NCBI RefSeq assembly: GCF_026213295.1
Contig: NC_079428.1
Span: 4,557,495 to 4,621,494 of the forward strand
Direction of reading: 5' to 3'
Length of the DNA: 64,000 nt
Origin: Gadus chalcogrammus
Taxonomy: Eukaryota > Chordata > Actinopteri > Gadiformes > Gadidae
Below, one piece after another: positions 10,601 through 25,600 of this stretch. How positions within the stretch are numbered: position 1 is the first letter of the stretch; the number at the start of each line of letters is the position of its first letter. Position numbers and translations under genes: made by a program. Under the pieces are notes generated by a model. It was given only the letters and a program-made list of their open reading frames with translations, was not told where the DNA came from and ran no database searches.

Positions 10601-13600
10601 GACTACCCCGGGAGCACCAGAGAACAGACTGGGCCTTACTTGTAGGGTAACAGCCCAGCTCTCCTCCTTGGAGCTTGCACTCCTGCTCTGGGGGGCACAC
10701 TGAGGCTGTGCACGTGATGCTTGGTGCGTTGCATCTACATTTCTGCTTACAGTCATCCACGTAAAACTCATCGCCAGGCTGGGAGAAAAAGAGGCATACA
10801 CAGAGAGGGGGAGAGAAAGAGAGAGATTGTTAGGTGGTAATATGAGGTGAAAGTGTGTTATCAACATCAACTTTAGTTTTCTTTGGGTGCGGGTGGTAGC
10901 CAGCAGGTGACATTCTTCCCTCTGGCCGAAGCATCAATCCCGATGCCCCAGTGCAGTGACGGGGACACTGTGCTGTGGAAGGCGCCGTACTTCGGAGGAG
11001 ACGTAAAACCCAGGTCCTGACTCACTGAGGTCATAAAAGATCCCAGGGCACTTATCAAAAAGAGTAGGGGTTTCCCCTGTGTCCTGGCAAAAACTGTCCA
11101 ACCAGGCTCATTCAATCTGGCCCCCTAATCATCCCCCTGCATTATTGGGTGATTCATTAATTCCCTCACTCTCCACCCCAACCTGGTGGGTGGTGAGCGT
11201 TCTGGCACAAATTGCCTGCCGTGCATCACCCAAGTGGATGCTACGCACTGGTGGTAGTAAGTGATGTTCCCCCCTTCACTGTAAAGCCCTATAGGGACTT
11301 GAAAAGCGCTATATAAATACAATGATTATTTATCAACTTGAAGGACCAACCAACCGAAGGCCAAAAACACAGAAAACACACACACACACACACACACCTC
11401 ATAGTACTGTCCGTTGTCTGTGTAGTTGCAGCCACAGGAGCTCTTCTCCACACACTTGCCGGCGCTCAGCACGTAGCCGGAGTCGCACACGCAGCCCTCG
11501 GAGCAGGGTCCCCCACAGCCCGAGGAACCCCCACTGCAGGACTCCTGGCAGGGGGGCGCACACGGCTCGTAGTGGCTGTTGGGATCACATGGGAGAGCTG
11601 GGGGGGGGGGAGAGAGAGAGAGAGAGAGAGAGAGAGAGAGAGAGAGAGAGAGAGAGAGAGAGAGAGAGAGAGAGAGGGTGATTACATAACTATATAAGCC
11701 GACTATACAGGTGTGACTGTTTTGTGACTTCTTCATACAGTAAACTGGAGATGAAGATCATCGAGAAGGGACAGAACCATCCATCTTACACCCATCATCC
11801 CTTTGTACACACAAAGACCCACACACAGACGCACACAGACGCACACACAATCGCGCACAAACACTCACGGCAGAAGGTGTCGTTCCTCCAGGTTCCCACG
11901 GTAACGCCGCGGTCCTGGCACTCGTTGACGTACGCCTCGATGGCCTCACAGAGGATGGGCCTGCTGCCGTCCAGCGCACACAGGTCAAACAGGCAGTCCT
12001 TGAAGTAGCTCTGCACACACACACGCACACACACAGACACACACACACACACACACACACGCCTTCCGTTAAGAGCAGGTCTGGACAATCTCAATGTCAA
12101 TTATGTTTGACTGGTTTTGCTTAAGAGCAGCACAGGTATATTAATCCATGTTGTTTATATCTTTCCGGACATTGTGTCGGTCAGTATTTGCGATGTGTTT
12201 CCCTGTGTTTGTGTGTGACCCAGTGTGTCCATGTGATCGTGTGTGGAGATGTTTTCCACTTTTTGTCTGTGGTGATGTGATCCAATGAGTGTGTTCTTGT
12301 GGTTGTGTAGATGGGGGTGGAGGACGACTCACATTGGGGTTGACTTTGCGGTGGCAGACGGCAAAGGGGCCCTTCTTGTCCAGCAGCATGCCACAGAAGC
12401 CAGAGCTCTCGTAGCGGTCCTGCTCTTCCTCTGTACAGCCGGGAACCGTGATGTTGGGCTTGGCATTGCAGCTACGAGAGAGACGGGCAAGACCTCAGTG
12501 AGTACTCAGTGTTTAATGATGGACCGAATCATTCTGCTCTCACTGCTTCTTTGAGTATCTTGACAAACAGTCAAATACAGGTGAAGCCATGTAGCTGTCT
12601 GGGCGGACACGTGATAGTACTTACGTTGGATCGGTGACCCAGCTGTGTCCAAAGTCGTTGGCGTTGGGGGTCAGTGTTCCGTCGGGCTTCCTGAAGTCAT
12701 CCTTGGCATTGAGGTTGTAGTCTCCGCACAGTCCACACAACTTGTCCTGGTAGCTGTAGGGAACAGGGATGGAATGAGGGAATGTCCTCGGCCACTTATC
12801 ATGACAACTGACAGGTGAATGGGAACAGCTGAAGTCTACTTACTCTTTGATCACCTTGATGTCCATGAAGTGGTTCCCATCATAGCGAACGGTGACGCCA
12901 AAGTCCATGGAAACCGTGTAGAATTTACCAGACTTGAACACTGACACGCCGGGGCTGGGAGTCAAGGGCAGGTTTACATTGGTCCCGTTCAGCTTTGAAG
13001 AAAGTGAAAGTATTTCAGAGGAGCACAATTGCTGGAGAACATTTTCAAATCTAAGTCTGCAGTGTGCTTATGGGGAAGACAACGTATTTATTGACAAACC
13101 ATAGCATTATTGCAGGGAAATTAACTACCTTGGCATTTCCTGATGGCATTTTTACCAATGGAGTTCAACAAAACCAGGTGAGCCAATCTAATCGCTCTTA
13201 GAAAAGCCCTTCATAAAGCACTTCAACAACAGTGAACAGCTTGCCAATGTGGAAGCTCTGTCTAAATGACTGTCACTTTCAGTCTGCTTTGGTCCTTCTT
13301 TACCTGAACAGTGCCTCCCTTCAGGATGGAGATCTTCTGCATGCGCACGTAAACGTGCACAGCCTTAATGTAGGAGATGGACGGGTTGTTGTAGCGGTTC
13401 TCGTTGTCGGCGTGGACCTCAAAGTGAGGGACGGACGTGTCATTGCACGGCTCCGACATCACGTAGCTGCAGTTGCCCATGAAGTTGTACTTGCGCCTAT
13501 CAAAGGTGCTGTAGTGAGGATCCCCCGACGCAACACACGTGGACGTGTCTGGAGGATTAGGGTAGAAATAGACATTGTTTTTAGCTAGGAAAGATCTAAC

Positions 13601-22600: not shown

Positions 22601-25600
22601 CACACACACACACACACACACACAGACCCGTACCTCATAGTACTGTCCGTTGACTGTGTAGTTGCAGCCACAGGAGCTCTTCTCCACACACTTGCCGGCG
22701 CTCAGCACGTAGCCGGAGTCGCACACGCAGCCCTCGGAGCAGGGTCCCCCACAGCCCGAGGACCCCCCACTGCAGGACTCCTGGCAGGGGGGCGCACACG
22801 GCTCATAGTGGCTGTTGGGATCACATGGGAGAGCTGGGGGGGGGGGGGAAGAGAGAGAGAGAGAGAGAGAGAGAGAGAGAGAGAGAGAGAGAGAGAGAGA
22901 GAGAGAGAGAGAGAAAGAGAGATCACATAACCATTTAAGCCGACTATACAGGTGTGACTGTTTTGTGACTTCTTCATACAGTAAAGTGAAGATGAAGGTC
23001 ATTGAGAAGGGGACGAACCATCCATCTTACACCCATCATCCCTTTGTACACACATAGACCCACACACAGACACACACACACATATACACACACACGCACA
23101 CATGCACAAACACTCACGGCAGAAGGTGTTGTTCCTCCAGGTTCCCACGGTAACGCCGCGGTCCTGGCACTCGTTGACGTACGCCTCGATGGCCTCACAG
23201 AGGATGGGCCTGCTGCCGTCCAGCGCACACAGGTCAAACAGGCAGTCCTTGAAGTAGCTCTGCACACACACATGCACACACACAATTTCCGTTGAGAGCA
23301 GGTCTGGACAATCTCAATGGCAATTATGTTTGACTGGTTTTGCTTAAGAGCAGCACAAGTAAATTAGTGCATGTTGTTTATATCTTTCTGGACATTGTGT
23401 CGGTCAGTATTTGCGATGTGTTTCCCTGTGTTTGTGGGTGACCCAGTGTGTCCATGTGATCGTGTGTAGAGATGATTTCCACCTTTTGTCTGTGGTTGTG
23501 TGATCCAATGAGTGTGTTCTTGTGGTTGTGTAGATGGGGGGGGGGGGACAACTCACGTTGGGGTTGACTTTGCGGTGGCAGACGGCAAAGGGGCCCTTCT
23601 TGTCCAGCAGCATGCCACAGAAGCCAGAGCTCTCATAGCGGTCCTGCTCTTCCTCTGTACAGCCAGGAACCGTGGTGTTGGGCTTGACATTGCAGCTACG
23701 AGAGAGACGGACAAGACCTCAGTGAGTACTCAGTGTTTAATGATGGATCGATTCATTCTGCACTCACTGTGTCTATGAGTGCCTTGAAAAACGGTCAAAC
23801 ACAGGTGTAGTAGTCATGCAGCTGTCTGGGCGGACATGTGATAGTCCTTACGTTGGATCGGTGACCCAGCTGTGTCCAAAGTCGTTGGCGTTGGGGGTCA
23901 GAGATCCGTCGGGCTTCCTGAAGTCATCCTTGGCATTGAGGTTGTAGTCTCCGCACAATCCACACAACTTGTCCTGGTAGCTGTAGGGCACAGGGATGGG
24001 ATGAGGGAATGTCCTGGGCCACTTATCATGACAACTGACAGGTGAATGGGAACAGCTGAAGTCTACTTACTCTTTGATCACCTTGATGTCCATGAAGTGG
24101 TTCCCATCGTAGCGAACGGTGACGCCAAAGTCCATGGACACCGTGTAGAATTTACCAGACTTGAACACTGACACGCCGGGGCTGGGAGTCAAGGGCAGGT
24201 TTACATTGGTCCCGTTCAGCTTTGAAGAAAGTGAAAGTATTTCAGAGGAGCACAATTGCTGGAGAACATTTTCAAATCTAAGTCTGCAGTGTGCTTATGG
24301 GGAAGACAACGTATTTATTGACAAACCATAGCATTATTGCAGGGAAATTAACTACCTTGGCATTTCCTGATGCCATTTTTACCAATGGAGTTCAACACAA
24401 CCAGGTGAGCCAATCTAATCGCTCTTAGAAAAGCCCTTCATAAAGCACTTCAACAACAGTGAACAGCTTGCCACTGTGGAAGCTCTGTCTAAATGACTGT
24501 CACTTTCAGTCTGCTTTGGTCCTTCTTTACCTGAACAGTGCCTCCCTTCAGGATGGAGATCTTCTGCATGCGCACGTAAACGTGCACAGCCTTAATGTAG
24601 GAGATGGACGGGTTGTTGTAGCGGTTCTCGTTGTCGGCGTGGACCTCAAAGTGAGGGACGGACGTGTCATTGCACGGCTCCGACATCACGTAGCTGCAGT
24701 TGCCCATGAAGTTGTACTTGCGCTTATCAAAGGTGCTGTAGTGAGGATCCCCCGACGCAACACACGTGGACGTGTCTGGAGGATTACCGTAGAAATAGAC
24801 ATTGTTTTTAGCTAGGAAGGATCTAACGTGTTTTACAATGAAGTAACGACGGATCACCACTCCAATCCAACTTTACGACAGCGCGGTTACCTTTAGGATA
24901 GCATCCGTGCGTCCCGCTGACCTCTCGGCACTCCTCGGTGGGGTCGCAGGAGTTGTCCACGCAGGACAGGGTGTAGTTCCCCGCACAGCGACACAGCTGG
25001 GAACAGCCGTCACCGTAGATGATCTCTCCGGGCTGTGGAGGAAGAAAGAGTGAGAGTGAGGAACAGCGAGCCGAAAGCTAACACCTTTGGCAATCCTTCT
25101 TTTCAGGGTGTCATTCTGTCATTCTGTCTGTGTCGGGTTCTGTAACCTCGTAGTAGTTGTTGTTGTCGTCCAAGCAGCCACACTTGTCCAGAGGCACACA
25201 GCGGCGGCCCTTGAACACAAAGCCCGGCTTGCAGAAGCAGCCGCTGATGCAGGAGCCGCTACAGTTGGTGGAGGGATCCTCACAGCTGGGAATACAGGCC
25301 GGCCCGCACTCTATGTACTCCGCGTCCGGAGGGCATTTATCTTTGAGAGAAGACGGACGACGAAAATGATAAATAAGACACACAGAACACAGACATCGCT
25401 TCAGAATGACGGATCTATGAGTGGCTCCAGTGTGTGGAGATGGATGTGCAGATGGGAACGATCTATGTTAATGACTCCATGGATCATTTGTGGTCGTGTT
25501 TGAGAGTACCAATTGGATTTTTATGGACTTACTTGGAGTTGTAGGTCCTGGGGTTGAGGGTTTAGGTGTAGTTGGGCCTGGAGTTGATGGTTTAGGTGTA

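What the first reader, a model, noticed from the sequence alone, without database searches (positions are those of the whole stretch)
10640..25340. Four-copy in-frame tandem expansion of a D'D-type cassette in a zonadhesin-like gene
The same exon series recurs four times at spacings of about 3,682, 3,787 and 3,758 bases (measured at the 245-base VWD exon). Exon lengths are identical in every copy (194, 142, 245, 149, 129, 139, 142, 200, 139), and with the 159-base Pro/Thr linker a unit is exactly 1,638 bases, 546 residues, entered and left in phase 1. A symmetric unit can be gained or lost without breaking the protein, so copy number is likely variable between individuals or relatives. Near-identity including introns implies recent origin.
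Basis: seen in the sequence. Interest (0 to 1): 0.85.

Follow-up and report, generated by a model that had tools for sequence, protein, structure and literature searches.

The report
Four-copy domain array in cod zonadhesin
A gene for a long, probably gut-lining, adhesive membrane protein of a codfish carries one 546-residue building block four times in a row, in an array whose copies have recombined with one another; this kind of event is already known from zebrafish and mouse.

Summary
A 64-exon chain, open throughout, reads as zonadhesin: two MAM domains, Pro/Thr linker, four units (TIL-TILa-VWD-C8-TIL-TILa), two further D assemblies, then the window edge. The closest database protein by identity, Gadus morhua 'zonadhesin, like' (98-99% outside the array), has three units; Lota has at least four, Merluccius one (gene models).

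Two corrections. The linker before unit 1 is a 231-base exon; only units 2-4 carry the 159-base one. And the array is not simply recent: units are mosaics that change partners within the unit, and the distinct terminal unit predates the split from G. morhua. An older array is being homogenised by recombination.

Full units are multiplied in 39 of 72 proteins compared (a list biased towards multi-unit proteins); in 32 of the 39 a species' own units form an exclusive clade. Zebrafish zan and mouse D3p are published precedents: a new member of a known kind. Likely role: a longer membrane-anchored gut mucin-like adhesin. Copy number within the species is untested.

The parts
1..32052 (-). zonadhesin gene: 64 exons (the last cut) from ATG at 32052 to the window edge, 3317 codons without a stop; continues for about 10 kb beyond the window
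   Evidence: continuation located by tblastn with the G. morhua protein on G000:C17:4547495-4557494
25881..30500 (-). exons for two MAM domains
   Evidence: Pfam PF00629, two stretches, E 1.5e-56
25533..25763 (-). first Pro/Thr linker exon, 231 nt
22170..25340 (-). unit 1: nine exons, TIL-TILa-VWD-C8-TIL-TILa
21766..21924 (-). 159-nt linker exon of unit 2
18383..21565 (-). unit 2
17980..18138 (-). 159-nt linker exon of unit 3
14699..17778 (-). unit 3 (identical to unit 1 over 493 of 493 residues)
14296..14454 (-). 159-nt linker exon of unit 4
10640..14096 (-). unit 4, the terminal unit (16-19 of 493 residues differ from the others)
14455..14698 (-). junction intron from exon i to linker (copies at 18139-18382 and 21925-22169): first ~41 nt align to the intron after unit 4, a later part resembles its minisatellite, and it ends in linker-type repeat at the proposed acceptor
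9946..10639 (-). intron after unit 4, with a minisatellite; proposed source of one duplication breakpoint (inference)
5279..9945 (-). next D assembly (VWD-C8-TIL-TILa)
1..4637 (-). following D assembly, cut by the window edge

Best explanation
This is the zonadhesin (zan / 'zonadhesin, like') gene of a codfish close to Gadus morhua. SHOWN: its first D'D cassette, bounded by phase-1 introns, is present four times in frame, so each further copy adds 546 residues (one Pro/Thr linker plus TIL-TILa-VWD-C8-TIL-TILa) without breaking the reading frame; different parts of a unit have different closest copies; the terminal unit groups with the terminal unit of G. morhua. INFERRED: a first duplication joined the minisatellite-bearing intron after the cassette to the middle of the repetitive Pro/Thr exon, an AG of the coding repeat becoming the acceptor of the new 159-base linker exon; unequal crossing-over or gene conversion among units then changed copy number and kept units alike in parts, while purifying selection kept the protein nearly constant. 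INFERRED FROM RELATIVES: the product is a single-pass membrane protein (EGF-like segment, transmembrane segment, short tail) of the gut mucosa, its VWD domains probably cut at GDPH and held together by disulphides as in FCGBP; extra units make a longer, more multivalent adhesive stalk rather than a new activity.
For: Exon identity, phase and open frame. MAM and VWD/C8/TIL/TILa domains. G. morhua zonadhesin, like: MAM 362 of 366, D5 379 of 386, D6 342 of 344 aligned residues identical. 93 two-against-two sites fall into 6 runs; 5000 shuffles gave at least 30. Introns a-c: u1-u4 2.1%, u2-u3 0.4%, other pairs 10.8-11.6%; introns d-g: u1-u3 0.7%, others 8.8-9.1%. dN 0-0.017, dS 0.023-0.073. Terminal units of window and G. 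morhua are sisters. A closely similar junction (CYPT, Pro/Thr linker, KCPP) is in the G. morhua and Lota models. GDPH in 134 of 146 units, SDPH in 12. G. morhua tail found in the DNA beside the window up to residue 3659 of 3667. Zebrafish zan RNA in gut, not testis (PMC1325057).
Against: No RNA or protein data for this species. The likeness of the junction intron to the minisatellite is weak (local score 41 against a maximum of 32 in 200 shuffles, low-complexity sequence) and the short motifs tested for breakpoint homology were absent from the intron after unit 4. In introns a-c unit 4 is close to unit 1, so the separate lineage of the terminal unit holds for its 3' part rather than for the whole. 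Lota's three full units carry SDPH, not GDPH. Unit numbers in other species rest on gene models. The mosaic does not tell how many exchanges there were.
Confidence: 0.72

Rival explanations
1. The four copies come from one recent burst of tandem duplication.
For: Units 1 and 3 encode identical proteins, and several introns are 0-1% apart between some pairs.
Against: Other parts of the same units are 9-12% apart and the closest copy changes within the unit; exon i of unit 4 is 12.2% diverged; the terminal unit groups with that of G. morhua.
Confidence: 0.1
2. Copy number is an assembly artefact: a real array of another size, or haplotypes laid end to end.
For: No reads were available; arrays of similar 3.7-kb units are hard to assemble, and the G. 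morhua gene model has three units.
Against: Every pair of copies differs and the mosaic needs distinct units; the contig is 18.0 Mb long and no further long copy was listed elsewhere, though that list was cut.
Confidence: 0.1
3. The gene is an FCGBP (IgGFc-binding protein) or alpha-tectorin relative rather than zonadhesin.
For: FCGBP is the top match among solved structures (8rde), and a number of fish relatives are named IgGFc-binding protein-like.
Against: The N-terminus gives MAM only; the protein closest by identity is named zonadhesin, like, and its end reads as EGF-like, transmembrane and short tail.
Confidence: 0.06
4. The array is a by-product of recombination with no functional consequence; copy number drifts.
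For: One-unit genes are common (32 of 72 rows; 62 of 120) and the phase-1 design makes gain and loss harmless to the frame.
Against: Protein is held nearly constant while introns diverge (dN/dS below 0.3 for all six pairs), though gene conversion could contribute; multi-unit genes occur in many fish.
Confidence: 0.35

Closest known systems
Zebrafish zan (Hunt et al. 2005, PMC1325057)
   Same: Recent tandem duplication inside zan; equal exon sizes; symmetric block flanked by phase-1 introns; DNA blocks 85-87% identical; three blocks on a BAC but two in the shotgun assembly, possibly a population variant.
   Different: The zebrafish block is 17 exons with two VWD domains and part of a third, about 5 kb, three copies; here it is nine exons plus a linker exon with one VWD, about 3.7 kb, four copies.
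Gadus morhua 'zonadhesin, like isoform X2' (P0124)
   Same: Same architecture and unit, near-identical linker junction; 98-99% identical outside the array.
   Different: Three units rather than four; its first two units pair with each other in the tree.
Mouse zonadhesin D3p repeats (as told in PMC1325057 and PMC9275260)
   Same: Lineage-specific tandem expansion of VWD exons in the same gene.
   Different: Twenty partial, two-exon D3 segments between D3 and D4, in a sperm protein.
Human FCGBP (PMC10880436; PDB 8rde, 8r0t)
   Same: Many D assemblies, three almost identical three-domain repeats, GDPH in 11 of 13 assemblies.
   Different: MAM domains are said to set zonadhesin apart from FCGBP (PMC1325057); no transmembrane end as far as I recall.

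Membership tests
Zonadhesin | MAM, mucin-like, then tandem VWD domains, in that order | tested here: met
   two MAM, Pro/Thr exon, then VWD assemblies in one open exon chain
Zonadhesin | EGF, transmembrane and short cytoplasmic end | tested here: inconclusive
   outside the window; the G. morhua tail, read by eye, is found by tblastn in the adjoining 10 kb up to residue 3659 of 3667, exons there not modelled
Zonadhesin (strict criterion of PMC9275260) | synteny between Ephb4 and Epo | not tested
   neighbouring genes were not surveyed; two open frames at 55-58 kb were tested and match a galactose-3-O-sulfotransferase; that paper calls fish genes ZanL
Zonadhesin | sperm-specific expression (mammals) | not testable with these tools
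   no RNA data; zebrafish zan was found in gut and not testis
FCGBP | N-terminal IgGFc-binding domain (recalled) | tested here: not met
   the 366-residue N-terminus matched MAM only at E up to 0.001
Alpha-tectorin | N-terminal NIDO domain (recalled) | tested here: not met
   the N-terminus matched MAM only; the C-terminal ZP domain was not tested
GDPH-bearing VWD domains | GDPH motif in the VWD domain | tested here: met
   present in all four units and both later assemblies; cleavage itself not tested

The most novel reading that the evidence does not exclude
The first D'D cassette of teleost zan is a recurrent hot spot: in many fish lineages it multiplies in several formats (one assembly, one assembly plus linker, two assemblies), the copies are homogenised within each species, and unit number is a rapidly changing, probably within-species polymorphic, length dial of a membrane-anchored gut mucosal protein.
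Probability: 0.4. Interest if true: 0.6.

Novelty: new member of a known kind. Interest (0 to 1): 0.4.

Why it matters
It supplies a DNA-level case of how a multi-domain protein grows and shrinks: symmetric introns, a linker exon that seems to have been made from coding repeat at a duplication breakpoint, and visible exchange between units. Set beside 71 other fish proteins it suggests that this cassette multiplies and homogenises repeatedly, which would make the effect of unit number on gut mucus testable between relatives with one and with several units.

Tried and rejected
Rfam at its gathering thresholds found nothing in the window. Exact microhomology at the duplication breakpoint was tested with four short motifs and not supported. 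A medaka lead for within-species variation (two- and three-unit gene models) stays inconclusive: at least one two-unit model lies on a contig of the same length as a three-unit one, so an isoform may explain it. Intron totals that include intron h were set aside, because unit 4 has about 300 extra bases there; one search repeats the count with introns a-g. No structure prediction was run, since sequence similarity to solved D assemblies was already strong. Papers: a search for zonadhesin with Gadus morhua returned two papers, judged by the listing alone to be unrelated; others (30 of 19,798 listed; 15 of 15; 11 of 11) showed no title or abstract start about a cod zonadhesin array. These searches cover open-licence PubMed Central papers only.
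Full report
OBSERVATION. Self-comparison shows four tandem blocks between about 10.6 and 25.7 kb, at 90-97% identity in pieces of 0.76-3.8 kb. One mononucleotide shuffle of the stretch gave no self-match above 13 bases. Exon search on the minus strand recovers each of the nine cassette exons four times at identical lengths, and a 159-base linker pattern four times, of which the one before unit 1 is part of a 231-base exon.

GENE. A chain of 64 exons, the last cut by the window edge, runs from an ATG at 32052 and is open for 3317 codons with consistent phases. 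Acceptor and donor dinucleotides were printed for the first 49 exons (AG and GT, apart from the start of exon 1); for the last 15 they were written into the search patterns. Pfam gives two MAM domains; for unit 1 with a linker VWD, C8, TIL (two stretches) and TILa (two stretches); for the last two assemblies VWD, C8 and TIL twice each and TILa once. Only those three pieces were scanned, not all four units. Solved relatives are FCGBP, von Willebrand factor and gel-forming mucins.

RELATIVES. One search covered 878 residues (unit 1, linker, most of unit 2); one search covered 2771 residues (unit 3 omitted by mistake). One search had 193 matches at E up to 1e-50, of which 120 are listed; only the 7986 candidates sharing most words were scored. 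By bit score the top three are proteins of Aplochiton, Pholidichthys and Sebastes, with many units; Gadus morhua 'zonadhesin, like isoform X2' is fourth but has by far the highest identity, 96% over 100% of the query. Outside the array it differs at 4 of 366 (MAM), 7 of 386 (D5) and 2 of 344 (D6) aligned residues, which I take to mean a close relative rather than the same species; this is inference. Full units: window 4, G. morhua 3, Lota 3 plus a fourth cut off by the end of the model, Merluccius 1. Muraenolepis has four incomplete unit matches; at two of its three junctions shown a unit end (GGELGCYLT) meets the next unit with no Pro/Thr linker.

WIDER COUNT. Among 71 hand-chosen listed proteins plus the window, full units number 0 in 1 (Muraenolepis, whose matches are too short for the cut-off, as I read), 1 in 32, 2 in 10, 3 in 23, 4 in 5 and 5 in 1. 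Over all 120 listed: 0 in 12, 1 in 62, 2 in 14, 3 in 27, 4 in 4, 5 in 1. The list favours multi-unit proteins, because scores add up, and it rests on gene models and contains repeat isoforms. In one search the lowest identity between a species' own units exceeds the best identity of its first unit to the first or last unit of any other genus in 32 of 39 multi-unit rows, and the highest does so in 37 of 39; the exceptions to the first are the window, G. morhua and five pipefish or seahorse species, to the second two of the latter. In a quick tree of 146 units (SH-aLRT support only) a species' own units form an exclusive clade in 32 of 39, the same seven being the exceptions; support is 85 or more except Pelmatolapia (48) and Knipowitschia (two identical units). 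This fits repeated expansion or concerted evolution; the tree cannot separate the two.

ARRAY HISTORY. Exons differ by 0.6-2.8% between units; dN is 0-0.017 and dS 0.023-0.073. In introns a-c, units 1 and 4 (2.1%) and units 2 and 3 (0.4%) pair, other pairs being 10.8-11.6% apart; in introns d-g only units 1 and 3 pair (0.7%), all other pairs being 8.8-9.1% apart. The 93 two-against-two sites form 6 runs; 5000 shuffles never gave fewer than 30. Neighbouring sites are not independent and intron c is likely to supply many of them, so the shuffle is only a guide, but the change of closest copy within the unit is plain. In the protein tree the terminal unit of the window groups with that of G. morhua and the inner units with the inner units. 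So at least two unit types existed before these species parted. Against a simple history: in its 5' introns unit 4 is near unit 1, so the separate lineage of the terminal unit applies to its 3' part.

JUNCTION. Between exon i and the linker of units 2-4 lies a 244-245-base intron. Its first 41 bases align to the intron after unit 4; a later part resembles that intron's minisatellite, with a local score of 41 against at most 32 in 200 shuffles. Its end is linker-type repeat, and the acceptor of the model lies within it. A near-identical protein junction is present in the G. morhua and Lota models. That one breakpoint fell in each of two repetitive stretches is inference.

PROTEIN. Each unit has 50 cysteines, one CGLCG motif and 8 N-glycosylation sequons; linkers are 37-40% Thr/Ser and 38% Pro. 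GDPH is present in all four window units; among 146 units 134 have GDPH and 12 SDPH, including all three full Lota units. In FCGBP this motif is cleaved by itself and a disulphide links the parts (PMC10880436). The G. morhua protein ends with what reads as an EGF-like segment, a hydrophobic segment and a short tail (my reading), found beside the window up to residue 3659 of 3667; the whole protein would then be about 4260 residues, an estimate.

ASSEMBLY. The window lies on an 18.0-Mb contig of a 629.9-Mb assembly in 168 contigs. A search of that assembly with unit 1 DNA lists long matches only within this array; matches elsewhere are at most 123 bases (40 of 976 candidates scored, list cut). 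VWD exons occur at many other loci (111 matches in all).

KNOWN. Hunt et al. 2005 (PMC1325057, four of six parts read) described zebrafish zan with a symmetric, phase-1, 17-exon block in three copies at 85-87% identity, possibly variable in the population, and gut expression. Roberts et al. 2022 (PMC9275260, passages and one section) count mouse D3p repeats and treat fish genes as ZanL, likely gut mucins. PMC5241972 (passages) reports an about three-fold higher tandem-repeat density in Atlantic cod than in other vertebrates, a possible driver of such rearrangement. The present array is therefore a new member of a known kind; what it adds is the mosaic record and the cross-species count.

Noticed in passing
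55464-58227, minus strand: Two open frames match galactose-3-O-sulfotransferase: a gene upstream of zan on the same strand.
   Followed up: partly
10827-11361: About 300 extra bases in intron h of unit 4, not in the other three units; looks like a SINE-type insertion by eye, not searched.
   Followed up: no
9960-10435: Minisatellite with ATTATCAC-type units in the intron after unit 4.
   Followed up: partly
P0139, P0145, P0156, P0165, P0174 (seahorse and pipefish proteins): The last unit carries SDPH while the others carry GDPH, and the lowest identity between units is 79-83%: an old split between unit types.
   Followed up: no
P0138, P0150, P0159 (Solea senegalensis): Here a later D assembly seems to be multiplied instead of the first.
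   Followed up: no
P0130, P0160, P0161 (Oryzias latipes): Medaka gene models with three or two units on contigs of equal or different length; isoform or strain difference not resolved.
   Followed up: partly
32111-32116, minus strand: TATAAA about 60 bases upstream of the start codon (read).
   Followed up: no
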